Shown piece by piece: positions 1,259-42,409 of a stretch of 64,000 bases of DNA (the stretch's first letter is position 1; every line of letters begins with the position of its first letter). Under the pieces are notes generated by a model. The model was not told the DNA's origin and did no database searches. It saw only the letters and a list, made by a program, of their open reading frames with translations. The stretch is from an uncultured Shimia sp. (GTDB lineage Bacteria; Pseudomonadota; Alphaproteobacteria; Rhodobacterales; Rhodobacteraceae), in the NCBI RefSeq assembly GCF_947493595.1, contig NZ_CANLRL010000002.1, positions 372,001 to 436,000 on the forward strand, in the 5' to 3' direction. Both the position numbers and the translations under genes were made by a program.

Positions 1259-1291
1259 CGATACAGCCGCGATACCGACGCAATACCGATA
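1259..1291 (+). repeat. Three tandem 11-bp repeats (iteron-like), copy C
   Basis: Three abutting 11-bp units lie at 1259-1269 (CGATACAGCCG), 1270-1280 (CGATACCGACG) and 1281-1291 (CAATACCGATA). The last base overlaps the Shine-Dalgarno AGGAG of the sulfotransferase-like gene. The middle unit is identical to units at 14446-14456 and, on the minus strand, 42380-42390. The 11-bp period is about one helical turn, as expected of a protein binding side-by-side sites, but the position directly on the ribosome site would also allow action at RNA level. Confidence 0.7.
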
Positions 1292-1303
1292 GGAGTTTGC
1301 CCC

Positions 1304-2017
1304 GTGAAAATTGCCATGTGGAGCGGCCCCCGCAACCTCTCAACCGCGATGATGTATGCCTTTGGCAACCGCGCCGATTGTGCCGTGGTGGACGAGCCTT
1401 TTTACGCTGCTTACCTCGCCATGACCGATCTCGATCACCCTATGGGGGCGGAGATTTTGGCATCACAGGATCAGGATCCCAACAAGGTCGCGGCCAGCCT
1501 TGTGCAAGCCAATCCGGAGAGCAAGCCGCACTTCTACCAGAAGCATATGACGCAACACATGATTGCTGGCGTGCCACGGGATTGGATGCGCAACGTCACC
1601 AATGTCTTCCTGCTGCGTCACCCCGCCCGCGTGATCGCGTCTTACGCCGCCAAACGTGAAAATCCGTCGCTCACCGACATCGGCTTTCCGCAGCAGCTGG
1701 AGCTAATGCAGCTGGTCTCAAGCTGGGGCCAAACGCCAATTGTGATCGACAGCCACGACATCCGCGACAATCCGCGCGAGATGTTGGAAAAACTATGTGA
1801 TGCCATTGGCTTGGGCTTTGATGGGGCCATGCTGTCCTGGCCCAAAGGTGGCCACAAAGATGACGGCGCGTGGGCGCCGCATTGGTATGGTGCTGTCTGG
1901 GACTCTACCGGATTTGCGGGCGCTGAAGGCCCGTTGCCAGAGGTGCCCGACAGTTTGCAGCCGGTCCTGCAAGCGGCGTTGCCTCTTTATGAAGAGATGA
2001 AAACGCACAAATTGTAA
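1304..2017 (+). CDS. Sulfotransferase-like P-loop protein
   Basis: A 237-aa protein starting at GTG with Shine-Dalgarno AGGAG 8 bp upstream. The N-terminal MKIAMWSGPRNLSTAMM matches the phosphosulfate-binding loop (5'-PSB) of bacterial sulfotransferase-family proteins. NVFLLRHPARVIASY near residue 105-119 resembles the 3'-phosphate loop (R-x-P-x-x-x-x-x-S). In this subgroup sulfotransfer has rarely been shown, and relatives are often annotated only by fold. It follows the class IV aminotransferase, suggesting a two-gene unit acting on an amino acid or amine. The 5' leader contains the tandem repeats described separately. Confidence 0.7.
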   Translation: MKIAMWSGPRNLSTAMMYAFGNRADCAVVDEPFYAAYLAMTDLDHPMGAEILASQDQDPNKVAASLVQANPESKPHFYQKHMTQHMIAGVPRDWMRNVTNVFLLRHPARVIASYAAKRENPSLTDIGFPQQLELMQLVSSWGQTPIVIDSHDIRDNPREMLEKLCDAIGLGFDGAMLSWPKGGHKDDGAWAPHWYGAVWDSTGFAGAEGPLPEVPDSLQPVLQAALPLYEEMKTHKL

Positions 2018-2023
2018 GGGGCA

Positions 2024-2082
2024 GGGGGCGTTGCCCCCGTCGCCGCGGGCGACTCCCCCAGGATATTTTTGGCCAAATGAAG
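2024..2082. repeat. Stacked GC hairpins with conserved-looking tail, Rhodobacterales-type intergenic element / terminator
   Basis: Two consecutive hairpins are visible: GGGGGC-GTT-GCCCCC (2024-2038) and GTCGCC-GCG-GGCGAC (2039-2053), followed by a cytosine run and the tail ggatatttttggccaaa (2061-2077). It sits between convergent genes and could end transcription from both sides. From memory, closely similar hairpin-plus-tail sequences recur after genes in many Rhodobacterales genomes. Only one copy is in this window, so repetition cannot be shown here. Confidence 0.5.
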
Positions 2083-2084
2083 CC

Positions 2085-2366
2085 CTAGGTCAGCAACTGG
2101 CCCAGCTTCATCGCCGTGCCCATGTCGCCGGACACCTTGAGTTTGCCCAGCATCAATGCTGTTGTGGGTTTCAGATCACCTGCCAGCAGCTTCACAAGGT
2201 TCTCCTCAGAGATCGACACGGTGCAATCGGTCTCGCGGTCTTCCTGCGTGGCCGTGTTGTCTGCCAGCACCACAACCCCGGCATCACCGCAGTCAAATTT
2301 CAATGTCCCGTCAAATGTCCGGTCTTTTAACCCCTCGGCCATTTGGGCCGCGATTTGTTCCAACAT
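2085..2366 (-). CDS. SCP2 sterol-binding domain protein
   Basis: A 93-aa protein that is a stand-alone SCP2 domain: MLEQIAAQMAEGLKDRTFDG ... VSISEENLVKLLAGDLKPTTALMLGKLKVSGDMGTAMKLGQLL. The end carries the typical 'a-x-x-x-G-K-x-k-v-x-G-d' signature of sterol carrier protein 2 domains, which bind acyl chains or other hydrophobic ligands in a cavity. The start chosen is the ATG at 2366 with GGGAAGA upstream; a longer frame upstream lacks family similarity. It is transcribed toward the sulfotransferase-like gene. The physiological ligand in bacteria is unknown. Confidence 0.8.
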   Translation of the reverse strand: MLEQIAAQMAEGLKDRTFDGTLKFDCGDAGVVVLADNTATQEDRETDCTVSISEENLVKLLAGDLKPTTALMLGKLKVSGDMGTAMKLGQLLT

Positions 2367-2429
2367 GTGATCTTCCCTAAGTAACCAGTTCACCCAAGTG
2401 GTTGCAGCCAACCCTCGGTGGCGCAAGGG

Positions 2430-3827
2430 TTACGTGGGGCCACTTAACGAACCGTTAAAACTCCCGCCAAGCGCGACATTCAGATCTACAAAATCAACTG
2501 CTCTGTTGCGCAAATCCAAGGCAGCCTGATTTTCAGTGTCCAAAAAGGCGCGCTCCGCATCCAAAACCTGAAGGAAAGAGGCTTGCCCGGAGGCATAAGC
2601 CTTGCGCGCCAAACGTAACACCTCTGCCGCTGCTTCTACCGCCTTTTTGGACAGCTCTACCGCCCGCGTGTTTTCACGTAATGCAAACAGCGAATTGCGG
2701 ACCTCCTCCACGGCCAGCACGATTTCTTTTTCCCACGCGGCTTTGCGTTCTGCCACCAGGCCTTTGGCGGTTTCCACTTTGCCGCGCCGCACCGGCAGGT
2801 CGTACCACGGGATGTCCAGATCAATGCGCAGGAAGGCCGCCAGCGGATCAAATCCTGAGCTGCCACCGGACACATTGACGTTCCCGGTCAGCCCGAGGCT
2901 TGGGTACAGGTCGGACTCTGCCACCCCTACCAGAGCCACGGCTTCGGCCAATTTTTTCTCGGCATAGACCACATCCGGCCGATTGCGCAGCAGGTCTGCC
3001 GGCACGCCTGTTGAAACAACGCTGGTTTTTGGGCTTGGCTGTGGCGCCCGCACATCCAGATCGTCCCGTTCAGCCAATTCTGTGCTGCCGACCAAGGCAG
3101 TGACACGGTTGACCATGCGCACGAACAATATCCGCGCGTCTGGCACTGCGGAACTTGTGCGCAGAACCAGCGCGTTGGCCTGCGCCACGTCCAATTCCGT
3201 TGCGCCACCTTCTTCTGCCAGTGACTTGGTGGCTTTGAGAGTCTCTTCGCGGCTGGCCAAGACACGTTGCAAAATTCGGGCCAATTCCTGCGCATAGCGC
3301 ATATCCAGATAGGCGGTCACCACCTCATCAACATACAGAAGCGTCCAAACATCCAAATCGGCATAGCTGGCTTCAAGCCGCGCAAAAGCCGCCTCTTTCT
3401 CCCTTTGCAATTTGCCAAACAGGTCCAATTTCCACTTGGCTTCAGCTCGCACAAAGCCTGTGGTTTCTGGTTCATTGCCTCCGCCCCCGCTGCGCTTCAC
3501 TTCGCTGACGCGGTTGGAGCCGCCAATCGGAAAACCTGCCGAGTCCAAAATGCCCTGAGATTGCTGAATTCGGGCTGCGATGCGTTGAATGTCTTTGTTG
3601 TTTTCAAGCCCGTATCCAACGAGCTTGTTCAGCAGTGAATCATTAAATGAGGTCCACCACTTGGCGTCGTGTTTGCGCACCGCGCCAGAGGGCCCCTTTT
3701 TAAAAAACCTATTGGCAACATCGGTGTCAGGGCGGGCGTAGTCCTCACCAACAGGGGCAATCGCACAGCCTGACAGTAACCCCAGCATCATGCTGCGCCG
3801 TGTCAAACTGCCTGTGACTTTTCTCAT
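2430..3827 (-). CDS. RND-type outer membrane efflux lipoprotein (NodT/OprM family)
   Basis: An outer-membrane channel subunit of a tripartite efflux pump, about 465 aa as expected. The N-terminus MRKVTGSLTRRSMMLGLLSGC carries a lipobox (LLSGC), so the mature protein is probably lipid-anchored. Two OEP repeats follow, with family segments NKDIQRIAARIQQSQGILD, WKLDLFGKLQREKEAAFARL, VPADLLRNRPDVVYAE and a C-terminal coiled region ending YASGQASFLQVLDAER. The ATG at 3827 is preferred to a TTG two codons earlier. No inner-membrane pump or adaptor is next to it. It lies 30 bp downstream of an MscS-type channel on the same strand. Confidence 0.85.
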   Translation of the reverse strand: MRKVTGSLTRRSMMLGLLSGCAIAPVGEDYARPDTDVANRFFKKGPSGAVRKHDAKWWTSFNDSLLNKLVGYGLENNKDIQRIAARIQQSQGILDSAGFPIGGSNRVSEVKRSGGGGNEPETTGFVRAEAKWKLDLFGKLQREKEAAFARLEASYADLDVWTLLYVDEVVTAYLDMRYAQELARILQRVLASREETLKATKSLAEEGGATELDVAQANALVLRTSSAVPDARILFVRMVNRVTALVGSTELAERDDLDVRAPQPSPKTSVVSTGVPADLLRNRPDVVYAEKKLAEAVALVGVAESDLYPSLGLTGNVNVSGGSSGFDPLAAFLRIDLDIPWYDLPVRRGKVETAKGLVAERKAAWEKEIVLAVEEVRNSLFALRENTRAVELSKKAVEAAAEVLRLARKAYASGQASFLQVLDAERAFLDTENQAALDLRNRAVDFVDLNVALGGSFNGSLSGPT

Positions 3828-3857
3828 GCTCAACCTGCGACGCCTTTTACGGGCACC

Positions 3858-5507
3858 TTATGCTTTTGGCGCTGCGGCCTCCGCTGCCGTCTCATGCGCC
3901 AGGGGTTCGTTCCAGTCGACTTCGGAAATCTTCAATTCCGGCGTGTCGGTTTCATAATTTGGTGTCATGATCTGCACGCCGTTTTCATTAAAGACATCGG
4001 TGATGTTCTTGTGCAAATCGCTGAGCAAAAGTGGCAACGAGGACCCACGTGTTGTGAATGCGTTGATCTGATAGTTGGTCGCAAAATCCAAAAGGCCGGT
4101 CACCAGCACAAAGGGCTCTGGTGACTTCTTCAGCCCTTTGGTGCGCCGCGCTGCTTCAATCAGCATGGCCTCAACCTTCTTGCGGGGCTCCTCATACCCA
4201 ATCCCCACAGTGGTGTGCAGCAACAAGCCTTTGCCGTCGATCTTGCTGGAATAGTTGATCACCTCCGAAGACAGCAACGTGGCATTGGGGATGGAGATCA
4301 GCTCGTTTTTCACCGAGCGTAGATAGGTCTCCATCAGCCGGATCTGCATGACATCACCATAGTGGTCGCCGACCCGAATGCGATCCCCCACATTCATCGA
4401 GCGCTTGTACAGCACAAACAAACCCGCCAATACGTTGGAGATCACCGAGTTTGAGCCAAGAGAGACCATCACCCCCACCAGAATGGTCAGCCCTTGGAAG
4501 GCTGCGGAATCTGATCCTGGAATATAGGGGAAACAGATCACCGCGGCGGTCAGGACAATGGCCCCGCGGATAAGATTGTAGGTAGGCCAGACCCAATGAT
4601 CCTCAAAGGTTTTGAGTTCGATCACACCCTGCTCAACGCTCTGGAAAAACAGATACACCCCTTTGATCATCCAGCGTGCAATGGCGGCGATGATCAGGAT
4701 GGTGACCAGGTTGGGCAGGTAGCTCACAAAGCCCAGCATCAGCCCAATGATCGGATCGGTCACATAGCGGATCAACAGCGCCGCAATGGGCCGCGTGTTG
4801 GGAAAGGAATGCAACACAAACGACAGGTAGTAATAGAACCCGGTGAACAGTGTGATGTCGACCAACAGCCGGATCAAAAACTTGGCGATGTTGGACACCG
4901 CTTGGCTTTGCACAATATCGCCCGTGGCTTCCTGAAGCCCTCGGGTGCGGTGTTCCACGACGCCCGCGAGAAAGCGCGGCACCCGTCGGCGCAGCCAAAA
5001 TAGAATGCCACAGTAAAAGGCAAACACTGCAGACCAGGCCAGGGCTGTCAACGTGCTTTGCGAGAACGCTTCATCGGTTCGGTTGGCGCGATAGGTTAAA
5101 ATGGCCGCTTCAATGGCTTCGGCATGCAGAGAGGCCAACACCGGCAGTTCCATTTGTTCAAAATCGGAGTCCGCTTGTGTGGTGACGCTCACCATGACCC
5201 CATCAGCAAATATGGTCTGGCCCAATTCCCCGCGCTCAATGCCCATGACCACGGATGTCGCCTCGCTGCGCTCTGCGACTTCGATGATGCGTTTTGCCAC
5301 CAAAGCAGCGCGTTCTTCGGCGGGCAAAGCGGTGGAGCCACGCACAGCAAACAGCTGCTCTCCGTCCACTTCCACAGCTTGAACAAAGACTTCGTCGTCA
5401 ACTTTGGGTGTGGTGGTGTCTTCGACTTCTTCCTCTTGTGCCCAGACCAAACCGGCGCTGAGCAGCAAGACTCCAAAAATGCGCGCAAAGTTTAAGAGTG
5501 TCCCCAT
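3858..5507 (-). CDS. MscS-family mechanosensitive ion channel with N-terminal periplasmic domain
   Basis: A 549-aa inner-membrane channel, longer than E. coli MscS (286 aa). Residues 1-23 are a signal peptide (LLLSAGLVWA/QEEE), followed by a soluble extracytoplasmic region to about 150 and then five or six hydrophobic segments. The pore helix region LVGVMVSLGSNSVISNVLAG fits the MscS TM3 pattern. The beta domain follows (VGDRIRVGDHYGDVMQIRLMET ... ISIPNATLLSSEVINYS) with a C-terminal alpha/beta part. It probably releases solutes during hypo-osmotic shock. The efflux lipoprotein gene follows on the same strand. Confidence 0.88.
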   Translation of the reverse strand: MGTLLNFARIFGVLLLSAGLVWAQEEEVEDTTTPKVDDEVFVQAVEVDGEQLFAVRGSTALPAEERAALVAKRIIEVAERSEATSVVMGIERGELGQTIFADGVMVSVTTQADSDFEQMELPVLASLHAEAIEAAILTYRANRTDEAFSQSTLTALAWSAVFAFYCGILFWLRRRVPRFLAGVVEHRTRGLQEATGDIVQSQAVSNIAKFLIRLLVDITLFTGFYYYLSFVLHSFPNTRPIAALLIRYVTDPIIGLMLGFVSYLPNLVTILIIAAIARWMIKGVYLFFQSVEQGVIELKTFEDHWVWPTYNLIRGAIVLTAAVICFPYIPGSDSAAFQGLTILVGVMVSLGSNSVISNVLAGLFVLYKRSMNVGDRIRVGDHYGDVMQIRLMETYLRSVKNELISIPNATLLSSEVINYSSKIDGKGLLLHTTVGIGYEEPRKKVEAMLIEAARRTKGLKKSPEPFVLVTGLLDFATNYQINAFTTRGSSLPLLLSDLHKNITDVFNENGVQIMTPNYETDTPELKISEVDWNEPLAHETAAEAAAPKA

Positions 5508-5615
5508 TCAACGCCCTCCCGGCGCAGCTCGATCCCAAGTCACAAGTCTTTTAGGAAACGCTAGCCGCCATCCTGCCTATCTCAAAGGAATTTTTCGGAT
5601 CGACGGTTGGGAGAC

Positions 5616-5645
5616 ACAAAAAAAGCCCGCCTCAAGGGCGGGCTT
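5616..5645 (-). terminator. Intrinsic terminator of argG
   Basis: Read on the minus strand: stem GCCCGCC / GGCGGGC (5625-5631 with 5637-5643), a five-base loop, then a run of seven T residues. It lies about 20 bp after the argG stop codon. Confidence 0.9.
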
Positions 5646-5664
5646 CTGTCGGAATGGTGTTGGC

Positions 5665-6891
5665 TTACTTGCCTGTGCGTTTGTTGCGCATCGCAATCAG
5701 CTTCAAACGCAGCGCTTGCAGCTGAATAAAGCCTGCCGCGTCTTTCTGATCATAGGCACCCGCGTCATCCTCAAAGGTCACGTGCTCTTCAGAGTAGAGC
5801 GAGTGGTCAGACCAGCGGCCCACGGTGGTGGCGCTGCCTTTGTAGAGTTTCACCCGCACGGTGCCGGTGACATGCTCTTGGCTCTTGTCGATTGCCGCTT
5901 GCAGCATTTCACGCTCCGGCGAATACCAGAAACCGTTGTAGATTAGCTCTGCATACTTCGGCATCAGCTCATCTTTCAGGTGCATCTCGCCGCGGTCCAT
6001 GGTGATGGACTCGATACCACGGTGCGCCTCAAGCAGCACGGTGCCGCCTGGGGTTTCGTAGATGCCACGGGATTTCATACCCACAAAACGGCCTTCAACG
6101 AGGTCCAGACGGCCAATGCCGTGCTTGCCGCCATATTCGTTCAGCTTGGTCAGGATGGTCGCCGGGCTCATCGCCTCGCCGTTGATGCTGACCGGGTCAC
6201 CTTTTTCAAAGCCGATTTCGATAAACTCTGGCTCGTTTGGCGCGTCCTCAGGGTGCACGGTGCGCTGGTATACGTAATCCGGTGCCGCAATCGCTGGATC
6301 TTCCAGCACTTTGCCTTCTGAGGAGGTGTGTAGCAGGTTTGCGTCCACCGAGAACGGCGCCTCGCCACGTTTGTCTTTGGCAACCGGGATCTGGTGCTGC
6401 TCGGCAAATTCCAGCAGCTTTGTGCGTGAGGACAGGTCCCATTCCCGCCAAGGGGCTATCACCTTGATGTCGGGGTTCAACGCATAGGCCGCCAGTTCAA
6501 AGCGCACCTGATCGTTGCCCTTACCGGTTGCGCCGTGAGCCACAGCATCTGCACCAGTCGCTTCGGCAATCTCAACCAGACGTTTGGAGATCAGCGGACG
6601 CGCAATCGACGTGCCCAGCAGGTACAGACCTTCATAGACTGCGTTGGCGCGGAACATTGGGAAGACAAAGTCGCGCACAAACTCTTCTCGCACATCTTCG
6701 ATGTAGATGTTTTCAGGCTTGATGCCCAAGAGTTCCGCCTTCGCACGCGCGGGTTCAAGCTCTTCGCCCTGACCCAGGTCCGCGGTGAAGGTCACCACCT
6801 CACAGCCATATTCGGTTTGCAGCCACTTCAGGATGATCGAGGTATCCAGGCCACCGGAATAGGCCAGCACAACTTTCTTCGGAGCCGACAT
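5665..6891 (-). CDS. argG: Argininosuccinate synthase
   Basis: Catalyses ATP-dependent condensation of citrulline and aspartate to argininosuccinate, the penultimate step of arginine synthesis, in the cytoplasm. It is 408 aa, the usual length. The N-terminus [20 protein letters not shown] holds the PP-motif ATP-binding loop [42 protein letters not shown] and [11 protein letters not shown] are conserved substrate-binding regions of the family. The ATG at 6891 with AGGGAAGAAAA upstream is the start; upstream codons in frame lack similarity. It appears monocistronic, with its own terminator. A second arginine gene, argJ, lies far off at 33.9 kb. Confidence 0.97.
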
Positions 6892-7042
6892 TTTTCTTCC
6901 CTTCGTCCATATAACGTTCGCGCGATAGCGGTTTTTGGCCCTGTGGGCAAGGCGAGCAGATCGCCGCACTTGCTTTTATTGCCCGCGATCTGTCACATGC
7001 AGGCGAAATTGGACAAAAACACTATCTTTAAGAGGTACTCAC

Positions 7043-7810
7043 ATGCAGGGGTGGAAATTGTTTTTACATGCGGTGCGCATGGTTGTCGGAAACTGGCGGG
7101 ATGCCATTCGAATTTTCTGGGCGCCTTGTGTTCTGATCGGGTTACTCCTTGTGGGGTTGACCCGAGCCATGTCCAACATTTTCGGAGAGAATTTCTCAGA
7201 AACTGGCACGATTTCCGGGACTCCGTCCGGCGGATCGATTGGTCTCAGTTTTCTGCTCATGTTGTTGGTGTTTTTTGTAATCGGCTGGGGCATCGTAGCG
7301 TGGCATCGCTTTGTTTTGGCGGAGGAGCAGCAATCTGGGCTGATCCCGCCATTTCACTTGGGCCGAATACTTGCCTATTTCGGACGACTCTTCCTGCTCG
7401 GCTTAGCTTGCGCAATCTGCGCTATTCCTCTGATGATGATTGGCACATCTGTTATGGGATCCGGTTCCATTGCCGGAACACTGGCGGTTCTGTTTGTGAT
7501 TTCTGTTCTGACGTCTGTTTTGATGTATCGTTGGGTCGCCATTCTGCCGGCCGCTGCGCTTGGCAAACCATTGACGTTTGGCGAAGCCTGGAGTGCCACC
7601 AGTGGCGCCACAGGCGCAATTCTCGTTCTTATGTTGACGGTATGGGCTGTCAGTTATGGGGGGCAATACTTGGTGCAAGCCATTTATGGGATTTCACCCT
7701 TCGTCGGTACCGCAGTGGACATTGTGTTCACGGCCTTGGTGGGTTTGGTGAATGTTAGCATTCTGACCACGTTTTATGGCCACTACGTCGAAGGCCGTTC
7801 GATCGACTGA
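7043..7810 (+). CDS. Polytopic membrane protein of unknown function
   Basis: A 255-aa protein starting at ATG 7043 with Shine-Dalgarno AAGAGGT 6 bp upstream. I do not recognise a characterised family. About six hydrophobic segments are visible near residues 20-40, 75-95, 115-135, 145-168, 190-215 and 228-252, with a glycine/serine-rich loop around 55-70 (SGTPSGGSIG). The fold resembles YciC-like and glycerophosphoryl diester phosphodiesterase membrane-domain proteins, but only loosely. It is divergent from argG and 50 bp upstream of ilvA on the same strand, so it may be cotranscribed with ilvA. Confidence 0.75.
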   Translation: MQGWKLFLHAVRMVVGNWRDAIRIFWAPCVLIGLLLVGLTRAMSNIFGENFSETGTISGTPSGGSIGLSFLLMLLVFFVIGWGIVAWHRFVLAEEQQSGLIPPFHLGRILAYFGRLFLLGLACAICAIPLMMIGTSVMGSGSIAGTLAVLFVISVLTSVLMYRWVAILPAAALGKPLTFGEAWSATSGATGAILVLMLTVWAVSYGGQYLVQAIYGISPFVGTAVDIVFTALVGLVNVSILTTFYGHYVEGRSID

Positions 7811-7860
7811 TCGACGACCTTCCTCTTGCCAAAACCTTTAGCTTCGGCCACTCAGGGCAC

Positions 7861-9099
7861 ATGAGCGAATTTCGTAAATGTGCCCGCACTGCCGAAGCCG
7901 CCATGCGCAGCGTTTTCCCCGCCACGCCTCTGCAGCTGAATGCCCATCTTTCCGCCCGCTTTGGTGCCGACATCTGGCTCAAGCGCGAAGACCTCACGCC
8001 TGTGCGGTCTTACAAGCTGCGCGGGGCTTTCAATGCCATGCGCAAAGTGCGCGCGAACAATCCAGAACAGCGGATATTTGTCTGTGCCAGTGCTGGCAAC
8101 CACGCCCAAGGTGTTGCCTATATGTGCAAGCATTTTGACGTTCAGGGCGTGATCTTCATGCCGGTCACCACGCCGCAGCAGAAGATCTTCAAGACGCAGG
8201 TGTTTGGCGGAGAAAATGTCGAAATCCGCCTTGTTGGAGATTATTTTGACGACACGCTGGCCGCGGCGCAGACCTATTGCGCTGAAGTTGATGCGGCCTT
8301 TTTGTCTCCGTTTGACGACGAAGATGTGATTGAGGGGCAGGCGTCGGTTGCGGTCGAAATTGAAGACCAACTTGGCCGTGTTCCGGATCACATCATTTTA
8401 CCCGTGGGCGGCGGCGGCTTGTCGTCTGGTGTGCACAGCTACTTTGCCGATGCGTTGACCTATACCCTAGTAGAGCCGGAAGGCGGCATGAGCCTCGCCG
8501 CTGCTCTGGACGCCGGTGCGCCAATCACTCTGGCGCATGTCGATAGCTTTGTGGACGGCGCTGCCGTCGCGCGCATTGGCGACAAAACTTTTGCCCGTCT
8601 GGCGGAGCTAAGACCGGAAGATGTGATTGCCGCTCCCGAAGACCGCATCTGCGCCACCATGCTGGAGATGCTCAATGTCGAGGGCATTGTGCTGGAACCC
8701 GCAGGTGCCTTGGCCGTGGACGCGCTTGTCGATGTGGCGGATCAGATCAAAGGCCAAACCGTTGTTTGTGTGACCTCGGGCGGAAATTTTGACTTTGAGC
8801 GACTGCCTGAAGTCAAAGAACGCGCGCAGCGTTACTCTGGGGTCAAAAAATACTTCATCCTGCGCATACCGCAGCGTCCGGGCGCTCTGCGTGATTTTCT
8901 CGAAACACTGGGCCCGGAAGATGACATCGCGCGGTTTGAGTACCTCAAAAAATCGGCACGCAACTTCGGCTCGGTTCTCATAGGCATCGAGACACGGAAA
9001 CCGGAAAATTTCGATGCCTTGTTTGAGCGCATTGAGGCTGCGGGCATGACCTATACCGACATCACCAATGACGAGACGCTGGGTCAGTTTGTGCTCTAG
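7861..9099 (+). CDS. ilvA: Threonine ammonia-lyase (threonine deaminase)
   Basis: A PLP enzyme converting threonine to 2-oxobutanoate and ammonia, the entry step to isoleucine. It is 412 aa, the shorter form with a single C-terminal ACT-like domain. K52 in the segment RSYKLRGAFNAM is the Schiff-base lysine. ASAGNHAQGVAY is the substrate loop and LPVGGGGLSSG the glycine loop holding the PLP phosphate. The C-terminal FILRIPQRPGALRDFLETL is the regulatory ACT-like part. The ribosome site before ATG 7861 is weak (CAGGG). The 188 bp that follow hold no gene I can support. Confidence 0.93.
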   Translation: MSEFRKCARTAEAAMRSVFPATPLQLNAHLSARFGADIWLKREDLTPVRSYKLRGAFNAMRKVRANNPEQRIFVCASAGNHAQGVAYMCKHFDVQGVIFMPVTTPQQKIFKTQVFGGENVEIRLVGDYFDDTLAAAQTYCAEVDAAFLSPFDDEDVIEGQASVAVEIEDQLGRVPDHIILPVGGGGLSSGVHSYFADALTYTLVEPEGGMSLAAALDAGAPITLAHVDSFVDGAAVARIGDKTFARLAELRPEDVIAAPEDRICATMLEMLNVEGIVLEPAGALAVDALVDVADQIKGQTVVCVTSGGNFDFERLPEVKERAQRYSGVKKYFILRIPQRPGALRDFLETLGPEDDIARFEYLKKSARNFGSVLIGIETRKPENFDALFERIEAAGMTYTDITNDETLGQFVL

Positions 9100-9287
9100 G
9101 TCGCCCAGGCCATTTGCTTAAGACTTATGATACCCGCGCCACAAAAGTCCAAACGCGGGCCGCATGGGTACTGGAAAAGCCTAACGGCGCATCAAAATGC
9201 ACAACGATTCGCCCAGGGCACTCCTTGGGTGATTCAAAAGTCTACTTTTTGACGGCGCCGTTTCCGGCCATATCAGGGGGCCGCTTT

Positions 9288-9611
9288 TCAGGCGGCAGCG
9301 AGCTTTTGCGCAAACACGCCTTTGCTTTCTTCAAACGATGCCAGGATTGCGGGCACGTCTACCGTGTCACCTTTGCCTGCGGCGGCCGCCGCTTCGCCAG
9401 CTTGGCACAGTTGCGAGAAAGTTTGGAAACCAAGGTTTAACGCGCCGCCCTTAAGAAAGTGCAGGTCAGCCTCAAGGGTGGCAATGTCCGGAGTTTCACG
9501 AAGGCGCGCAATCACTTCCTCAACTTCGTCCAGAAAGAGTTCCACCACTTCACCAAAGTCTTCCGCGCCGATTTCGTCGCGCAGTTCCTCTACTCGTTCC
9601 CAGTCAATCAT
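9288..9611 (-). CDS. Histidine phosphotransfer (HPt) domain protein
   Basis: A 107-aa stand-alone HPt module. H51 in DLHFLKGGALNLGF is the predicted phosphorylated histidine, fitting the HPt pattern H-x-L-K-G-x-A-x-x-L-G. The whole protein is a predicted helical bundle. The second of two ATGs (9611) is chosen because Shine-Dalgarno GAGGAA lies 6 bp before it and touches the first ATG (9617). It is divergent from the receiver-phosphatase gene, which suggests the two exchange phosphate in one signalling chain. No histidine kinase is nearby. Confidence 0.85.
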   Translation of the reverse strand: MIDWERVEELRDEIGAEDFGEVVELFLDEVEEVIARLRETPDIATLEADLHFLKGGALNLGFQTFSQLCQAGEAAAAAGKGDTVDVPAILASFEESKGVFAQKLAAA

Positions 9612-9776
9612 GGGCATTTCCTCATTATTCACCCCTAGACAGTGACAGAAAAGTGTTAACAAATCCTACACGATAAAATTTGAACTATCTCATTTTTACT
9701 TTTGACGGCATGTTAAGTAGCAAGACCATAGTTGTGTTACGAAAGAAGTCAAAATTTGTACAAAGGTCAGGGAAGC

Positions 9777-33151: not shown

Positions 33152-33168
33152 TTAGATTGTCTTGGCTC

Positions 33169-35096: not shown

Positions 35097-35969
35097 TTAC
35101 TGATCCTGCCCTGAATTTGGGCTCAGCAACTGGATTTGCCCCAACACGTTGGGATCGACGGCGTCGGCGCCTGAGCGGTCAACATCTGCCTCTGTGGCTG
35201 TGGTTGCGATAAAGGCTTCCACCGCGCGTCGCTGTGCGTCATTTTCGATCTCCGAGCGAGCATCTTCAAACGATGGTGCGAGAGATTTGCGAGCGTCATT
35301 CAGAAGGATCAGGTGCCAGCCAAATTGTGTTTGCACGGGTTGAGAAATTTCTCCTACTGCAAGGCCCATCACAGATTCCTCAAACGGCTTAACCATTTGC
35401 CCGGTGCCAAACCACCCTAGACTACCGCCTGACGCACCGGACGGGCCGGTGGATTTGGCCATTGCTGTTTCGGCGAAATCGGCGCCGTCGGTTAGCTCCT
35501 TGCGGATCGCCTGCGCTTCTTCCTCTGTCGCAACGAGAATGTGGCTCGCGTTGTATTCGTCTTCTCCAACAAAACCTTGGTATTTGTCATCATAAGCAGC
35601 GCGCAATTCGTCTTCGCTCAATTCGTTTTGCAACACAAAGGCTTCGAGTGCCTCAGCGGCTAGCAGCGTGCGACGTTCGTTGCTCAAAGCGATCTCGACC
35701 CGTTGGGGTATGGCATCGCCCAAACTTTGCGCCAGCGCAGTTTGTTGTACCAGTTGGTCTAGGATACTGCCAAATAGCACGTCACTTGGAATTGATTGAT
35801 ATTGCTCAGGCAAACCTGCGCGGACCGAGATCATTTCGCCAAGCGTGATGACTTCTCCGTTTACAGATGCCACGACGGTGTCAAGCGATGGCGTTTCCTG
35901 AGCAACGGCAGGCAAAGCGCCACAGAATGCGATCACGCCGGCATGCAAGAAGTTGAGGTGTTTTGACAT
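35097..35969 (-). CDS. Periplasmic peptidyl-prolyl isomerase (parvulin/PrsA-like)
   Basis: A 290-aa foldase with a signal peptide (LHAGVIAFCGALPAVA/QE). An N-terminal chaperone-like part (VVASVNGEVITLGEMISVRA) precedes a parvulin domain: YNASHILVATEEEAQAIRKE, GGSLGWFGTGQMVKPFEESV and TQFGWHLILLND. It helps fold exported proteins in the periplasm. ATG 35969 with AAGGAC upstream is used. It is divergent from secA, a functionally related arrangement: secretion motor on one side, periplasmic foldase on the other. Confidence 0.92.
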   Translation of the reverse strand: MSKHLNFLHAGVIAFCGALPAVAQETPSLDTVVASVNGEVITLGEMISVRAGLPEQYQSIPSDVLFGSILDQLVQQTALAQSLGDAIPQRVEIALSNERRTLLAAEALEAFVLQNELSEDELRAAYDDKYQGFVGEDEYNASHILVATEEEAQAIRKELTDGADFAETAMAKSTGPSGASGGSLGWFGTGQMVKPFEESVMGLAVGEISQPVQTQFGWHLILLNDARKSLAPSFEDARSEIENDAQRRAVEAFIATTATEADVDRSGADAVDPNVLGQIQLLSPNSGQDQ

Positions 35970-36139
35970 CGTTTTGTCCTTGGCTTGTGCCGCGCGGGTT
36001 GGCGGCGTTGACACTGTTCCTGACGCCCCTTACATCGCTTTATGGTCAAGGCAAACAGGCTGTTTCCCCGTTTCTAGGAGCACAGAGCCGGGACAGCAAG
36101 AAGTAGCCACGCAACAAGCGTCAACGAAGGACAAGTTAT

Positions 36140-38851
36140 ATGCTCGGTTTCGGAAAAATCGCCAAAAAAGTTTTTGGCACGCCTAATGATCGTAAGGTCA
36201 AGGCGACACGTCCGATCGTTGAAAAGATCAATGCGTTGGAAGCTGAGTTCGAGAAGCTGACCGACGAAGGCATCAAGGACAAAACCAAAGAGTTGTCCGA
36301 TCGTGCAAAAGGTGGTGAGCTCCTGGATACTCTTTTGCCGGAAGCCTTTGCCAACTGTCGCGAAGCCGCCAAGCGAGCATTGGGGCTACGGGCTTTTGAT
36401 GTTCAGTTGATGGGGGGCATTTTTCTCCATCAGGGCAATATCTCAGAGATGAAGACTGGCGAGGGTAAAACCCTTGTGGCAACTTTCCCAGCGTATCTGA
36501 ACGCCTTGACCGGCAAGGGCGTTCATGTTGTGACCGTGAACGACTACCTGGCCAAGCGTGACGCTGAGTGGATGAGCAATGTATTTGGCGCTTTGGGCAT
36601 GACCACCGGTGTTGTGTATCCTCAGCAGCCAGAGGACGAAAAGCGCGCGGCTTACGCCTGCGACGTGACTTATGCTACCAACAACGAATTGGGCTTTGAC
36701 TACTTGCGCGACAACATGAAAGGCGAGTTGGCCGACATGTCGCAGCGTAAACATCACTACGCAATTGTGGATGAGGTCGACAGCATTCTGATCGATGAAG
36801 CCCGGACACCTCTGATTATCTCCGGGCCGTCTCAGGACCGCTCGGACATGTACAACGCGATTGACAAGCTGATCCCGGAATTGCGGGATGATCACTATAC
36901 GCTTGACGAAAAATCCAAGAACGTGACCTTCACTGACGATGGCAACGAATTCCTCGAAGAACATCTTCACGCACGCGGTTTGCTGCCGGAAGGTCAGAGC
37001 CTTTATGACCCGGAGAGCACGTCCATCGTGCATCACGTGAACCAGGGTCTGCGCGCTCATAAGCTTTTTATCAAAGACAAAGACTATATTGTTCGAGACG
37101 GACAAGTTGTTCTGATTGATGAGTTTACGGGCCGTATGATGGCTGGTCGTCGTCTGTCCGAAGGTCTGCATCAGGCAATTGAAGCCAAAGAGGCGTGTGA
37201 CATTCAGCCTGAAAACGTGACGCTGGCGCAGGTGACTTTCCAAAACTACTTCCGTCTTTACGACAAACTTGGTGGCATGACCGGTACGGCGGCCACTGAA
37301 GCAGAAGAGTTCCAAGAGATTTATGGTTTGGGTGTCGTTGAGGTTCCAACCAACCGTGGTGTGGCGCGCTTGGATGAAGATGACGCCGTGTACCGAACTG
37401 CGCGTGAGAAGTTTGATGCAATTGTTGATACGATCAAAGTGGCCAACGAAAAGGGCCAGCCGATCCTTGTCGGTACGACTTCAATTGAAAAATCCGAGTT
37501 CCTGTCGGGCATGCTTGAAAAAGCGGGTGTTAAACACAGCGTTTTGAACGCACGGCAGCACGAGCAGGAGGCACAGATTGTTGCGGATGCCGGTAAGTTG
37601 GGCGCCGTAACCATTGCTACCAACATGGCTGGCCGTGGGACTGACATTAAACTTGGTGGCAACGTCGAATTCAAAGTGTTGGAAGCCATCGCCGCCAACC
37701 CCGATGGCGACCACGAGAAAATTCGTGCGGAGATTGAGGCGGCGCATGAAGACGATGAGCAAGCTGTCAAAGATGCTGGTGGCCTGTTTGTCTTGGCAAC
37801 CGAACGCCATGAAAGCCGCCGAATCGACAACCAACTTCGCGGCCGTTCTGGTCGTCAGGGCGATCCTGGCCGGTCTTCCTTCTTCCTGAGCTTGGAAGAT
37901 GACCTGATGCGGATTTTCGGCTCTGATCGTCTGGATAAAGTTCTGTCTTCTCTTGGTATGAAAGAAGGCGAAGCAATTGTGCACCCGTGGGTGAACAAAT
38001 CACTTGAGCGTGCTCAGGCCAAAGTTGAAGGTCGAAACTTTGATATTCGCAAGCAGCTATTGAAGTTTGACGACGTGATGAATGACCAGCGTAAAGTGGT
38101 CTTCTCTCAGCGCCGTGAGATTATGGAAGCAGCGGATCTGTCTGAGATTGTTCAGGATATGCGCCACGAAGTGATTGACGACTTGGTTGAACAACACTTG
38201 CCACCCAAGACTTACGCGGATCAGTGGGATACCGAAGGTCTGTACGCAGCTTCTATTGAACATCTTGGTGTGGATGTGCCTGTAATTGAATGGGCGGCAG
38301 AAGAAGGTGTGGATGATGATAGCATTCGCGAACGCCTGGAGGACGCCGCAGACGAGATGATGGCGGCTAAAGCGACCAACTTTGGTCCGGAAGCTATGCG
38401 CATGGTTGAAAAGCAAATCCTGCTGCAAACCATCGACACAAAGTGGCGCGAGCACCTTTTGACACTGGAACACCTGCGTTCGGTGGTGGGGTTCCGTGGC
38501 TATGCACAGCGTGATCCACTGAACGAATACAAAAACGAAGCGTTCCAACTGTTTGAAAGCATGTTGGACAGTTTGCGCGAAGACGTGACAACAACTTTGT
38601 CTCGGGTGCGCCCAATCTCCGAGGAAGAGCAGCAACAGTTGCAGCAGGAAATGGTGATGCGCCAGCAAGCCCTAATCGCGCAAGCACAGGCGGGTTCCGC
38701 GCCGGCGCAACCGTCTTCAGAGCCAAATGGAGAGGCGTTGGCGGGGTTTGATGAGAGCGATCCATCGACCTGGGGTAATCCTGGTAGAAATGCCGACTGT
38801 CCATGTGGCTCTGGTAAAAAGTTTAAGCATTGCCACGGACGCTTGGCCTAA
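36140..38851 (+). CDS. secA: Preprotein translocase ATPase SecA
   Basis: The motor of Sec protein export. It is 903 aa. Nucleotide-binding fold 1 has Walker [13 protein letters not shown] (about residue 105) and DEAD-type [15 protein letters not shown]. The second fold includes [16 protein letters not shown] and [18 protein letters not shown]. The C-terminal tail holds a zinc-binding SEC-C motif, [17 protein letters not shown], which binds SecB and phospholipid. Complete, with no sign of damage. A terminator follows. Confidence 0.98.
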
Positions 38852-38880
38852 TCAGCGCCAAAATCCGACAGACAAAGATC

Positions 38881-38909
38881 AAAAGGGTGCCTTATGGGCG
38901 CCCTTTTTC
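38881..38909 (+). terminator. Intrinsic terminator of secA
   Basis: AAAGGGTGCC / GGCGCCCTTT stem (one G-T pair) with TTAT loop region and five T residues, about 30 bp after the secA stop. Confidence 0.85.
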
Positions 38910-38954
38910 TTTGTGAAATTGCCCCGGAAGCAGGATCCAGACACGGGAGCAATC

Positions 38955-39959
38955 ATGCCCACCTTTAAACATGTCTATCGACGGTATGCGATGTCCTTTG
39001 CCACTGTGGCGGTGGCAATGTGCATTGGTTTTGCAATGCAGACGTCCGAAGCTGCCATTTTGGCTACCGATGAGAATGCTCAGGGTCATTTTGAAAGGGC
39101 CCCTGGTCCAGTTCCTCACAACTTTGTAGGTCCGCAGAGGATTGACCGTATGGCATTGCCATCGCTGCCAAATGACTACGGGCACGGCGTGGCGCTTTTG
39201 CAGGAGCCAGTGTTGATCGCTGTTGCGGATGATATTCCCGTCGCCATTTTGCCAACAGAAGAGACCGCACCTCGTTTGGGGTGTGGGCTTGCCATGTCTG
39301 CCGAGCCTGCGGCAGGAGCGCTTATCGATTTGCGGCTCTCGGCGCCGTGCCATGCCAATGAAGTGGTTATGTTCAAGCACGCGAATTTGATTTTTCACAT
39401 GCTGATGCCAGATGAAGGTGCGATGGCGGTTTTGATCCCCGCACTAGAAGAAGAGGCAAATGTGAGTGTGGCTTTTGCAAACGGCGATACTGCTCAAACG
39501 AAAACGGTTGTGGATAGTCTTTCTTTTTACGACCGGGTGGTGATTGCTTGGGGTGGCCACAAAGGCGCGGAACTTCACGCACGGGAGTTTGGGGCGCAAT
39601 ACGGAGAGGCTGGTCATGTGTGGCGAGAGCAACCGCGTGATGTTGGCTCTCTGGCTGGTGGCAAGGGGGGCTTTTTGGTTTCGCTCGGAAATTCGGAGCT
39701 GCCAGTTTCCGGCCAGGCTGAAATATATACGTTTCCAACAGGCCTCTCGACCCAAGTTGGTGATGTTAAGGTTAGCGTTGAAGCTGAAGTGACCAAAAAC
39801 AATTGCGGTAAACGTCTAATAGCTCAAAGCTGGACCTTGCGGCAGGGACGCGTAGAGGGGCAGCATGATCTAGAGTTACAAATGCCGGACTGCTCGGCAA
39901 TTGGCGAATTTCTGGTGTTGAAAAACCTCGTCGAAGACCTGACAATTGCGCAAAATTAA
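38955..39959 (+). CDS. Exported protein of unknown function
   Basis: A 334-aa protein starting at ATG 38955 after GGGAG. Residues 12-34 form a signal sequence (MSFATVAVAMCIGFAMQTSEA/A). No known domain is recognised. Five cysteines or fewer are present; LGCGLAMSAEPAAGALIDLR, APCHANEVVMFKHANLIFHM and SLSFYDRVVIAWGGHKGAEL suggest a mixed alpha/beta or beta-rich extracytoplasmic protein. It lies 21 bp before the PstS-OmpA chimera, so both are probably cotranscribed and act together outside the inner membrane. Confidence 0.75.
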   Translation: MPTFKHVYRRYAMSFATVAVAMCIGFAMQTSEAAILATDENAQGHFERAPGPVPHNFVGPQRIDRMALPSLPNDYGHGVALLQEPVLIAVADDIPVAILPTEETAPRLGCGLAMSAEPAAGALIDLRLSAPCHANEVVMFKHANLIFHMLMPDEGAMAVLIPALEEEANVSVAFANGDTAQTKTVVDSLSFYDRVVIAWGGHKGAELHAREFGAQYGEAGHVWREQPRDVGSLAGGKGGFLVSLGNSELPVSGQAEIYTFPTGLSTQVGDVKVSVEAEVTKNNCGKRLIAQSWTLRQGRVEGQHDLELQMPDCSAIGEFLVLKNLVEDLTIAQN

Positions 39960-39980
39960 GCTGGCGGTCAGGACATCATC

Positions 39981-41540
39981 ATGATGCAGTTTCGTGCGGC
40001 GGTTTGCGCCGCACTTTTTGTTTTGGTTGGAGTGTCCTCTGGCCATGCACAGGACGTGTTTTTGAAATCGCACGATGGCGAAGTCGAAATCTCAGGGACG
40101 TTGCTTGGGTTTGACGGCGAGTTTTATCGTGTCGAAACCATCTATGGCGAGCTAACTGTTGACGGCTCCGGTGTGTGGTGTGAGGGGCCAGGATGTCCCA
40201 ATCTTATCAACTATGTAGCCGAAGTTTCGATCTCTGGATCTTCGACCATGGCGGAAGTGCTGATGCCGGCATTGCTGGAGGCTTTTGCCTTGAGTGAAGG
40301 CTATCTGGTGACACGCGAGAGTGAGTCTGTGCACCGTTTCACATACCACCTGAGTGAACCGGAGACGAAGCAACGGCTGGCGACTTTTGATTTTCATGCC
40401 AGCAATGCAGATGAGGGGTTTGCGGATCTTTTGGCCGATGAAGCGGACATTGCGATGTCTTTGCGTGAGATTCGACCAAGAGAGGCTCAGCTGGGATATG
40501 AGGCTGGCTTGGGTGATATGGGGGATGCGAACCGCAGCCGGGTGTTGGCCTTGGATGGTATGGTGCCAGTGGTGTCTGCGGGGAACCCCGTTTCCTCGGT
40601 GTCCCTTAATCAGTTGGCTTATGTTTTTGCAGGAAAAATTTCGAACTGGAGCGAATTGGGTGGGCCAGACGCACCGATTACGTTGCACTTGATGGCGCCG
40701 CAATCTGGTTTCGCGCAGGCTGCCGAGGATCAGTTGATGAAGCCCACGAAAATGCCCCTGGCCGAAGCGGTTGTGCGTCACGAGCGGAACTTAGCGATGG
40801 TGAGTGCTGTTGAGCGCGATCCGTTTGCGATTGGCATTGCGTCTTATGCAGAGACGGGTAATGCCAAACACCTGACGTTGACTGGCCAATGCGGCTACTC
40901 TTTGGCAGCGTCGCAGCGGACGATCAAAACCGAGGACTATCCCCTTAACGCCCCGATGTTTCTATATTTTCCGGCGCGGCGGCTTCCCAAGCTGGCGCGG
41001 GACTTCCTGACCTACACGCGGAGTCCTTCGGCGCAGCTTGTCATTCGGCGCGCGGGGTTTGTCGATCAGACGGCGGAAGAGATTTCGATAAATCACCAAG
41101 GAGATCGGTTTGCCAACGCGATTGCGTCTTCTGGCAAAGAGGTGTCGCTGGAGGCGATCCAGGGGATGGTGGGCACTCTGTCTGGCATGAAACGGCTGTC
41201 GACTTCTTTCCGGTTTCAAACCGGATCCACCAAGCTGGACGCACAGTCACGTTCAAACGTGCAGCAACTGGCGCGGGCACTGGAAGCGGGGATGTATGAT
41301 GCGAGAAGCCTTTATTTTGTTGGGTTTTCGGACGGTGAGGGGCCTGCAACAGGGAACCTGCAAATTGCCGAAAAACGCGCCAAGGTGGTGAAGGAGGCTG
41401 TGCTGTCGGCGGCGGAAACCGCGAACCCGGAGCGGATTGATTTGCAGGTGCATGCGTTTGGCGAGGCGATGCCGATGGCGTGTGATGACAGCGCCTGGGG
41501 GCGGCAGGTGAACCGGCGGGTGGAGGTGTGGGTCAAGTGA
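39981..41540 (+). CDS. Chimera of PstS-like phosphate-binding domain and OmpA C-terminal domain
   Basis: A 519-aa exported protein. Residues 1-24 are a signal peptide (LFVLVGVSSGHA/QD), followed by a short segment (VEISGTLLGFDGEFYRVETI). Residues about 75-370 form a PstS-type type-II binding fold: VSISGSSTMAEVLMPALLEA, ADIAMSLREIRPREAQ, LNQLAYVFAGKISNWSELGG. The last 120 residues are an OmpA-like peptidoglycan-binding domain (FQTGSTKLDAQSRSNVQQLA ... RVEVWVK). It would tie a ligand-binding module to the cell wall. It is not next to pst transport genes. Ends 1 bp from the convergent radC stop. Confidence 0.87.
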   Translation: MMQFRAAVCAALFVLVGVSSGHAQDVFLKSHDGEVEISGTLLGFDGEFYRVETIYGELTVDGSGVWCEGPGCPNLINYVAEVSISGSSTMAEVLMPALLEAFALSEGYLVTRESESVHRFTYHLSEPETKQRLATFDFHASNADEGFADLLADEADIAMSLREIRPREAQLGYEAGLGDMGDANRSRVLALDGMVPVVSAGNPVSSVSLNQLAYVFAGKISNWSELGGPDAPITLHLMAPQSGFAQAAEDQLMKPTKMPLAEAVVRHERNLAMVSAVERDPFAIGIASYAETGNAKHLTLTGQCGYSLAASQRTIKTEDYPLNAPMFLYFPARRLPKLARDFLTYTRSPSAQLVIRRAGFVDQTAEEISINHQGDRFANAIASSGKEVSLEAIQGMVGTLSGMKRLSTSFRFQTGSTKLDAQSRSNVQQLARALEAGMYDARSLYFVGFSDGEGPATGNLQIAEKRAKVVKEAVLSAAETANPERIDLQVHAFGEAMPMACDDSAWGRQVNRRVEVWVK

Positions 41541-41541
41541 C

Positions 41542-42303
41542 CTACAACAAACCCTGGCTGCGAAAGCTGAGTTCCTGAGATTTTCCAATGATAATATGGT
41601 CATGCAGGGTCAGACATAGGGCCTGGCAGGCCAGGTTGATCTGCTGAGTCATGGTGATGTCGGCCTCTGATGGCGTTGGGTCACCGGATGGGTGATTGTG
41701 CACCAAAATCAAGGCACTGGCGTTGAGTTCCAGAGCGCGTTTGGCGACTTCGCGAGGATATACAGGCACGTGATTCACGGTGCCCTGGGCCTGAGCTTCA
41801 TCCGCAATCAACGTGTTTTTTGTGTCCAAAAACAACACTCTAAACTGTTCCGTGTCGCGATGTGCCATGGTGGTGTGGCAATAGTCCAGCAAGGCCTGCC
41901 AATCCGAAAGCACCCGACGGTGCATAACGCGGGTACGGGCGAGGCGGTGGGCAGCGGCTTCAACCACTTTTAATTCACAGATCACCGCGTCGCCGACCCC
42001 TTTGACCTCAGCCAATCGTGCTGTAGGAGCGCTCACGACGCCGTTGAAATCTCCAAACATTTCAAGAAGTTCGTGCGCCAGAGGTTTCACATCCTGTCGG
42101 GGGATGGCGCGGAAGAGAAGCAATTCCAGTAGCTCATAATCCGGCAAGGCTTGCGCCCCGCCAGAAAGAAAACGGCTGCGCAGACGCTTGCGGTGATCGG
42201 CGACATAAGAGGGCAATTTGCCGGATGGCAGTGGCAAAATGGGAGCTTCATCCGCTTCAAAAAGCGGGAGCGGCCTTTCGACAAAGTCACGTGCCTTGGA
42301 CAT
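41542..42303 (-). CDS. radC: RadC family JAB/MPN-type protein
   Basis: A 253-aa protein. The N-terminal helix-hairpin-helix part (LPDYELLELLLFRAIPRQDV, LAEVKGVGDAVICELKVVEA) precedes a JAB1/MPN-like metal-binding domain with HNHPSGDPTPSEADITMT. RadC was once linked to DNA repair; its enzymatic role is not settled. In Rhodobacter capsulatus I recall radC among genes used to take up gene-transfer-agent DNA. The upstream leader contains copy B of the dispersed repeat, reading toward this gene, ending 65 bp before its start. Confidence 0.9.
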   Translation of the reverse strand: MSKARDFVERPLPLFEADEAPILPLPSGKLPSYVADHRKRLRSRFLSGGAQALPDYELLELLLFRAIPRQDVKPLAHELLEMFGDFNGVVSAPTARLAEVKGVGDAVICELKVVEAAAHRLARTRVMHRRVLSDWQALLDYCHTTMAHRDTEQFRVLFLDTKNTLIADEAQAQGTVNHVPVYPREVAKRALELNASALILVHNHPSGDPTPSEADITMTQQINLACQALCLTLHDHIIIGKSQELSFRSQGLL

Positions 42304-42360
42304 GTCTTAACACTGTCCTAACAAGGTAAATCAAAGGTTAATCTCAGTCGCAATTAGGGG

Positions 42361-42409
42361 CTTTGGCACGTCGGTATCACGTCGGTATCGCGACTGTTTT
42401 GCGGAGGTG
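42361..42409 (-). repeat. 49-bp dispersed repeat with two tandem 11-bp units, copy B
   Basis: On the minus strand, units CGATACCGACG (42380-42390) and TGATACCGACG (42369-42379) abut. The block matches 14416-14464 in reverse complement at 45 of 49 positions, including the flank CACCTCCGCAAAACAGTC and the end TGCCAAAG. The outer GGCAC and GTGCC form an inverted pair in this copy. It reads toward radC. Confidence 0.75.

What the first reader, a model, noticed from the sequence alone, without database searches (positions are those of the whole stretch)
1259..42409. Family of tandem 11-bp repeats at three loci, always oriented toward a gene
Abutting units of consensus NRATACCGACG occur as three copies at 1259-1291, two at 14435-14456 and two (minus strand) at 42369-42390. 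In each case the repeat reads toward the gene that starts next: the sulfotransferase-like gene, the ABC exporter and radC. I found no other tandem pair in the window, and single ATACCGACG matches (for example inside hemH near 20959) lack the tandem form. An 11-bp period is about one helical turn, as in side-by-side protein binding. The unusual feature is the wide separation and unrelated neighbours, which suggests a regulon or an RNA element rather than a local duplication.
Basis: partly seen in the sequence, partly recalled or inferred. Interest (0 to 1): 0.72.

Follow-up and report, generated by a model that had tools for sequence, protein, structure and literature searches.

The report
Oriented chromosome markers in Shimia bacteria
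About ninety copies of a 44-base signal, most made of four 11-base repeats, sit like one-way signs between genes around the chromosome of Shimia bacteria, and the base composition of tens of thousands of bases beside the signs follows their direction, which points to an undescribed chromosome-wide process rather than ordinary gene control.

Summary
The tandem 11-bp repeats are real but only part of a larger element, usually four 11-bp units (71 of 84 copies). The host genome has 84 profile matches at E<=0.001; 22 of 25 genomes of its genus (Shimia) have 19-94. It is not a regulon: 83 of 84 copies are intergenic, enriched between convergent genes (31 of 78; background 41 of 281), depleted between divergent ones (3 of 78; 74 of 281), without preferred direction between co-directional genes (24/20). 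Sites are old: 68 of 80 copies examined in other records share a host junction and orientation. Strand follows local GC skew, not gene direction. Third-codon skew forms a sawtooth, strongest just 5' of elements, fading over roughly 40 kb, dropping on the 3' side. GC3 steps at the element (0.699/0.656, p=6e-9; control 0.695/0.692). Gaps depend on direction: facing about 18 kb, same strand about 44, back-to-back about 81-92. A relative without elements has weak skew. Best reading: a polar DNA-processing landmark, recombination- or transfer-like. Protein, process and causation are unproven.

The parts
1249..1292 (+). Element copy 1: four 11-bp units (cgcactgtcgc-gatacagccgc-gataccgacgc-aataccgatag), degenerate; between an aminotransferase (ilvE/dat-like) gene and the sulfotransferase-like gene
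   Evidence: Sequence; two pattern hits with 2 mismatches each; profile match at G000:C2:373244-373289, 47.2 bits; upstream gene
14414..14457 (+). Element copy 2: cccacctccgc-aaaacagtcaa-aataccgacgc-gataccgacgt; between a CCA-tRNA-nucleotidyltransferase-like gene and an ABC exporter gene
   Evidence: exact pattern; profile match 55.8 bits; genes
42368..42411 (-). Element copy 3: ggcacctccgc-aaaacagtcgc-gataccgacgt-gataccgacgt; between radC and an amino-acid ABC transporter binding-protein gene; one of only 3 copies between divergent genes
   Evidence: exact pattern; profile match 63.1 bits; array upstream of radC in 21 of 24 genus genomes with a radC hit
1..10000 (.). Stretch of negative to near-zero GC skew that holds the first '+' copy
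16000..64000 (.). Stretch of positive GC skew that holds the '-' copy

Best explanation
The element is a DNA-level, polar landmark of the chromosome: a 44-bp array of (usually) four head-to-tail 11-bp sites for an unidentified protein. It marks where a strand-specific process starts or is released and runs to the element's 5' side for roughly 40 kb, fading with distance. The process leaves an excess of C over G on the element strand and a higher GC3 on that side. I think the process is most likely recombination- or transfer-related (Chi-like or oriT-like in logic), because composition rises as expected for GC-biased conversion, genes are not co-oriented with it, and no fixed switch point lies between facing elements. 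Shown: the family, its architecture, conservation, gene context, strand rule, sawtooth, GC3 step, direction-dependent spacing, and weak skew in an element-free relative. Inferred: that a protein binds; that the element causes the asymmetry; that the process is recombination or transfer.
For: Strand agrees with the sign of local GC skew in 72 of 84 host copies (means +0.122 for 52 '-' and -0.055 for 32 '+', p=8e-13), and the rule holds in 80 copies of other records (p=3e-13) and 29 of G017 (p=1.2e-4); these sets share many orthologous sites, so they are not fully independent. Third-codon skew of genes on both strands agrees; gene direction does not matter (r=0.02). Mean profile of 37 elements from three genomes, cut at neighbours: -0.03 at -44 to -40 kb (n=14), -0.17 at -4 to 0 kb and -0.045 at +4 to +8 kb (n=37 each), then rising again toward the next same-strand element; in 8 of 8 same-strand intervals over 20 kb the last quarter exceeds the first (p=0.008; 5 shorter intervals left out). 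GC3 5'/3': 0.699/0.656 (79 of 84 sites, p=6e-9), 0.696/0.651 (71 of 80, p=2e-9), 0.699/0.658 (29, p=5e-5); 102 element-free convergent gaps 0.695/0.692 (p=0.4). Facing versus back-to-back gaps with every listed copy: p=0.0014 (G000), 1.8e-4 (G010), 0.0029 (G017). Spacing more even than random: CV 0.62, 0.69, 0.72 against 0.91, 0.91, 0.97. Element-free G009: mean size of third-codon skew 0.06 and lag-1 autocorrelation 0.42, -0.18, -0.23 in three stretches, against 0.11-0.14 and 0.71-0.80 in four stretches with elements. Genes on the local G-rich strand: 325 of 673.
Against: No protein or enzyme identified and no causal test: elements could be placed by a pre-existing asymmetry. 10 of 32 '+' and 2 of 52 '-' copies disagree with the skew sign; 4 of these 12 are contig-end copies. 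Element-free genomes show weaker skew of the same sign at the thioesterase locus (-0.12; carriers with the site -0.29, carriers without it -0.20) and nearly the same on the 5' side at radC (-0.16 against -0.21). One G009 stretch has some structure and a sign change in raw skew near C4:174 kb. Within 2.5 kb skew is equal on both sides (p=0.19). Genes show small local direction biases on the 5' side (137 of 326 opposite at 0-10 kb, 150 of 266 at 10-20 kb). AddB is in all 25 genomes, so it does not separate carriers from non-carriers. Contiguous data are 1.36 Mb of three carriers, and the stretches were chosen because they hold strand changes. G023 gaps (10) were not significant (p=0.1).
Confidence: 0.42

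Rival explanations
1. Replication starts: forks start near many elements and move to the 5' side, so the chromosome has many minor or stress-used origins; the array is an iteron-like initiator site.
For: Skew sign fits a leading strand leaving the element 5'-ward; upward jumps between facing pairs and slow decline between back-to-back pairs have the form recalled for discrete initiation with dispersed termination.
Against: No gene co-orientation (325 of 673); the switch point between 11 facing pairs is not fixed (fractions 0.12-0.97 of the gap); within each of three genomes GC3 is lower between facing pairs (0.62, 0.62, 0.72) than between back-to-back pairs (0.67, 0.68, 0.76; few intervals), opposite to the usual ori-ter trend (recalled).
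Confidence: 0.2
2. Segregation pointer: a KOPS-like motif that tells an FtsK/SpoIIIE-type translocase or an SMC complex the direction; skew arose independently and the motif follows it.
For: Strand polarity; even spacing; intergenic; long single-strand runs (all listed G017:C1 copies from 748 to 1876 kb are '-').
Against: Polarity flips many times within contigs; the GC3 step and sawtooth at the element itself are not expected; few and long copies for a KOPS-like motif (recalled).
Confidence: 0.13
3. Biased-uptake signal: a DNA uptake or packaging signal that spread because fragments carrying it are taken up or transferred; spacing reflects fragment length.
For: 3'-end placement, even spacing and lineage consensus with site turnover resemble uptake sequences (recalled); mean spacing about 45 kb; patchy presence in other genera.
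Against: About 90 long copies rather than a thousand or more short ones; strand polarity and a one-sided tail are not features of known uptake signals (recalled).
Confidence: 0.12
4. Fossil mini-element inserted in a replication-coupled orientation (REP/IS200-like or similar).
For: Dispersed, oriented, intergenic; few close neighbours (1 of 70, 1 of 69 and 3 of 64 gaps under 10 kb), which target immunity could give.
Against: 68 of 80 sites shared; array conserved better than flanks outside the search pattern; no Y1 transposase in the host, and a match in only 8 of 25 genomes; no shared hairpin.
Confidence: 0.06
5. Transcription-factor regulon.
For: 11-bp head-to-tail spacing is that of OmpR/PhoB-type regulators (recalled).
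Against: Convergent enrichment, divergent depletion, no direction relative to co-directional genes; strand follows skew.
Confidence: 0.03

Closest known systems
Chi sites (RecBCD/AddAB regulatory sequences; recalled)
   Same: Polar; act on one side of the site with distance decay; oriented relative to replication
   Different: Chi is 5-8 bp with one copy per few kb; here 44 bp, about 90 copies, intergenic, reach about 40 kb
KOPS / SRS (FtsK/SpoIIIE pointers; recalled)
   Same: Strand-polarised chromosomal motif
   Different: KOPS is 8 bp and uniform per replichore; here polarity flips repeatedly and composition steps at the copies
DUS/USS uptake sequences (recalled)
   Same: Lineage-specific, 3'-end placement, even spacing, turnover of sites
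   Different: Short and in high number, no one-sided compositional domain known
REP/BIME elements with RAYT transposases (recalled)
   Same: Dispersed, extragenic, favour 3' ends
   Different: Palindromic hairpins tied to Y1 transposases; here no shared hairpin and no such gene in the host
ArcA/PhoB-type direct-repeat binding sites
   Same: Head-to-tail units at 11-bp spacing (recalled; a paper on ArcA site architecture, PMC3798270, was seen only in the listing)
   Different: Those regulate promoters; these avoid divergent promoter gaps

Membership tests
Chi-like recombination site | Polar effect on one side that decays with distance | tested here: inconclusive
   Skew and GC3 profiles fit, but they are a compositional proxy, not recombination
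Chi-like recombination site | Switches a RecBCD/AddAB nuclease | not testable with these tools
   AddB present in 25 of 25 genomes incl. 3 without elements: not discriminating
Chi-like recombination site | Short and very frequent | tested here: not met
   44 bp, 84 copies in 4.28 Mb
KOPS/SRS | Uniform polarity from ori to ter on each replichore | tested here: not met
   Repeated strand flips within contigs, also on the dnaA contig C2
KOPS/SRS | Read by the FtsK gamma domain | not testable with these tools
   No binding data
DUS/USS | Even spacing, intergenic, lineage-specific consensus | tested here: met
DUS/USS | High copy number of a ~10-bp word | tested here: not met
REP/RAYT | Y1 transposase in the genome | tested here: not met
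   None in G000; match in 8 of 25 genomes, 7 over cut-off, one of them element-free
REP/RAYT | Hairpin-forming palindrome | tested here: not met
   Five copies folded, z +0.34 to -2.59, no shared structure
Replication origin (oriC/iteron type) | Upward skew jump at a fixed point with co-oriented genes | tested here: inconclusive
   Jumps between facing pairs but at no fixed point; no gene co-orientation
Transcription-factor regulon (OmpR/PhoB type) | Sites in promoter regions in a consistent direction | tested here: not met
Structured RNA element | Conserved fold | tested here: not met

The most novel reading that the evidence does not exclude
Shimia chromosomes are tiled into about ninety directed units of roughly 45 kb, each started by a 44-bp four-site array, by a chromosome-wide DNA process (start of replication, recombination or strand transfer) not described in bacteria; this process, more than ordinary ori-to-ter replication, shapes strand composition there.
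Probability: 0.35. Interest if true: 0.93.

Novelty: categorically new. Interest (0 to 1): 0.8.

Why it matters
Bacterial chromosomes are taught as two replication arms whose strand composition is set by one origin. Here strand composition follows about ninety short oriented signals with a reach and a spacing rule. If the signals cause it, they reveal a new way in which a bacterial chromosome is copied, repaired or exchanged; if not, they still give a set of polar sites whose binding protein can be fished out, with natural controls (three genomes of the genus without them, nine other genera with eight or more hits).

Tried and rejected
Regulon and RNA element: rejected. RAYT/IS200 mobility: rejected. 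Plasmid and phage collections: no match to a 60-base consensus at E<=0.01; 5 viral contigs match a short pattern exactly, one (L385) with a four-unit array. AddB as a discriminating factor: in all 25 genomes. Window as chromosome origin: skew changes sign in it, but dnaA lies at G000:C2:42057, outside. rRNA at contig ends: Rfam found none in the four G000 contig-end loci, but 16S starts about 690 bp beyond the element in G010:C12; that the G000 copies are rRNA-linked is inferred. Gain or loss: a two-gene tree groups the three element-free genomes (support 0.95), but its base is weak and unrooted. Papers: (listings with starts of abstracts; passages of PMC6739100) showed no description of this element; one search listed 20 of 108 papers holding a 9-mer. 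Only these searches support the claim that it is not in print.

Rows dropped or biased: one search found 103 stretches, 80 were given as loci; all share one strict pattern, so they favour copies like the host's, and the 68 shared ones fall on about 36 distinct host sites. The conservation claim uses bases outside that pattern. One search left out 1 of 30 sites (L013). One search used 29 of 30 G017 loci (one double). One search kept 79 of 84 and 71 of 80; one search kept 48 of 80. Searches left out contig-end copies and some small contigs; one search repeats the gap test with all 84 and 80 copies: the rule holds, G000 weaker (p=0.0014 instead of 2.6e-5), and one gap under 10 kb appears in each of G000 and G010. 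The G017 list lacks 3-mismatch places that one search did not print. Background gaps come from held G000 stretches, some chosen around elements. Gene calls in my statistics come from a simple codon-usage caller written here.
Full report
OBSERVATION. The three loci exist. Exact tandem pairs stand at 14436-14456 (+) and 42369-42389 (-); the run at 1259-1291 is degenerate. Shuffled sequence gives none. Aligning copies showed a longer element, GCACCTCCGC-AAAACAGTCGC-GATACCGACGC-AATACCGACGT in most host copies, with A-rich 5' and T-rich 3' borders. In the host genome 71 of 84 copies have four units in exact 11-bp register, 11 three, 1 two, 1 five.

DISTRIBUTION. The host genome G000 (4.28 Mb, 23 contigs) has 117 pattern hits at up to 3 mismatches, reversed control 0. 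A sequence profile built from 29 copies finds 88 places at E<=1 and 84 at E<=0.001. Of 25 genomes of the genus, 22 have 19-94 profile matches and three (G005, G009, G012) none. Records with the element are titled Shimia, unclassified Rhodobacteraceae and one Pseudopelagicola; genus member G017 has the contig length of Shimia sp. Alg240-R146, so the genus is Shimia. In a family-wide sample of 248 genomes 23 had at least one hit at up to 2 mismatches; besides the two Shimia genomes, nine genera had 8-91 (one, G190, only in a GATGCCGACG variant). So the element is abundant in Shimia and patchy beyond.

POSITION RELATIVE TO GENES. 83 of 84 copies are intergenic; the other lies in a weak 46-codon call. 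Where both neighbours are known (78), 31 are between convergent, 44 between co-directional and 3 between divergent genes; background gaps of 45 bp or more in held stretches of the same genome are 41, 166 and 74 of 281 (chi-square p=5e-8). In co-directional gaps 24 copies run with and 20 against the genes. This is not a promoter element.

AGE AND CONSTRAINT. Of 80 copies examined on contigs of other records (80 of 103 stretches found), 68 match a host copy on both flanks in the same orientation, 5 on one flank, 7 not; the 68 fall on about 36 host sites. In 17 groups of orthologous sites, array bases outside the search pattern are about 0.90 identical on average, against 0.71-0.82 in intergenic bases within about 45 bp. 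Upstream of radC, 21 of 24 genus genomes with a radC hit carry an array in the same orientation although the surroundings have changed; the three without are the element-free genomes. Within 200 bp of a thioesterase gene's end 15 of 22 carrier genomes have it. Sites therefore last long but turn over.

STRAND RULE. '-' copies lie in positive skew (mean +0.122, n=52), '+' copies in negative skew (-0.055, n=32; p=8e-13); the sign agrees in 72 of 84. It holds in 80 copies of other records (p=3e-13) and in 29 of G017 (p=1.2e-4); many of these sites are orthologous to host sites. Third-codon skew of genes on both strands agrees, and gene direction is unrelated to skew around the sites (r=0.02), so transcription does not explain it.

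SAWTOOTH. Contiguous stretches of G000, G017 and G023, chosen because they hold strand changes, show third-codon skew growing toward elements from the 5' side and dropping after them; skew tends to jump upward between facing elements and to fall slowly between back-to-back ones. Over 37 elements the mean on the element strand, cut at neighbours, goes from -0.03 (-44 to -40 kb) to -0.17 (-4 to 0 kb) and to -0.045 (+4 to +8 kb), then grows again toward the next same-strand element. In 8 of 8 same-strand intervals over 20 kb the last quarter exceeds the first (p=0.008). GC3 steps from about 0.70 on the 5' side to about 0.66 on the 3' side in three data sets, while 102 element-free convergent gaps show no step. 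Within 2.5 kb the skew itself does not differ between the sides.

SPACING. Neighbouring copies are more evenly spaced than random in three genomes. Gaps depend on direction. With every listed copy the medians in G000, G010 and G017 are: facing 18, 19, 18 kb; same strand 44, 38, 53 kb; back-to-back 81, 92, 84 kb (facing against back-to-back p=0.0014, 1.8e-4, 0.0029). Gaps under 10 kb number 1 of 70, 1 of 69 and 3 of 64; in G000 and G010 that one gap involves a contig-end copy, probably beside rRNA genes. A small G023 sample (10 gaps) was not significant (p=0.1). Read simply, each element owns about 42 kb on its 5' side.

CONTROL SPECIES. In 626 kb of G009, which lacks elements, third-codon skew is small (mean size 0.06) and mostly unstructured, although one of three stretches has lag-1 autocorrelation 0.42 and a sign change in raw skew. 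Single 20-kb stretches of G005 and G012 are nearly flat. At two gene loci the element-free genomes still show weaker skew of the same sign in part, so some asymmetry is older than or independent of the element.

MECHANISM. These facts point to a one-sided, strand-specific process tied to the element. Replication starts would give the same sign of skew, but genes are not co-oriented (325 of 673), the switch point between facing pairs is not fixed, and GC3 is lower there than between back-to-back pairs in each of three genomes. GC rise plus strand bias plus decay fits recombination or strand-transfer processing better; 5' flanks are also slightly less alignable between species (0.92 against 0.99, p=0.015 over 28 host sites). 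Eleven-bp head-to-tail units suggest a protein binding along one face of the helix (inference). Which protein is unknown.

LIMITS. Draft genomes, my own gene caller, partial maps, correlation only. dnaA positions were found in seven genomes, but chromosome arms could not be ordered.

Noticed in passing
window 48985-49130 (+): Rfam RF02645 Cis2_sRNA (Ruegeria cis2 sRNA), 73.1 bits, above gathering score.
   Followed up: no
L380 (G010:C12) 8664 and 9354: An element sits about 690 bp upstream of 16S rRNA and reads into it; contig-end copies of G000 (C2:213, C9:216735, C11:84349, C14:48188) are exceptions to the skew rule.
   Followed up: partly
L007, L024, L026, L028 and others, within about 60 bp of elements: GTTAAC or GGTTAA words are common beside the elements; enrichment against other intergenic DNA was not tested.
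   Followed up: no
L385, near 7480: A four-unit array on an IMG/VR viral contig, perhaps prophage or host flank.
   Followed up: no
G000:C2 292-356 kb (L230, L229, L228, L227): Lower-GC stretch (0.50-0.56) with near-zero or slightly positive skew, island-like, holding one '+' element.
   Followed up: no
G190 (another genus): Eight hits of a GATGCCGACG variant of the tandem pair, suggesting motif drift or an unrelated repeat.
   Followed up: no
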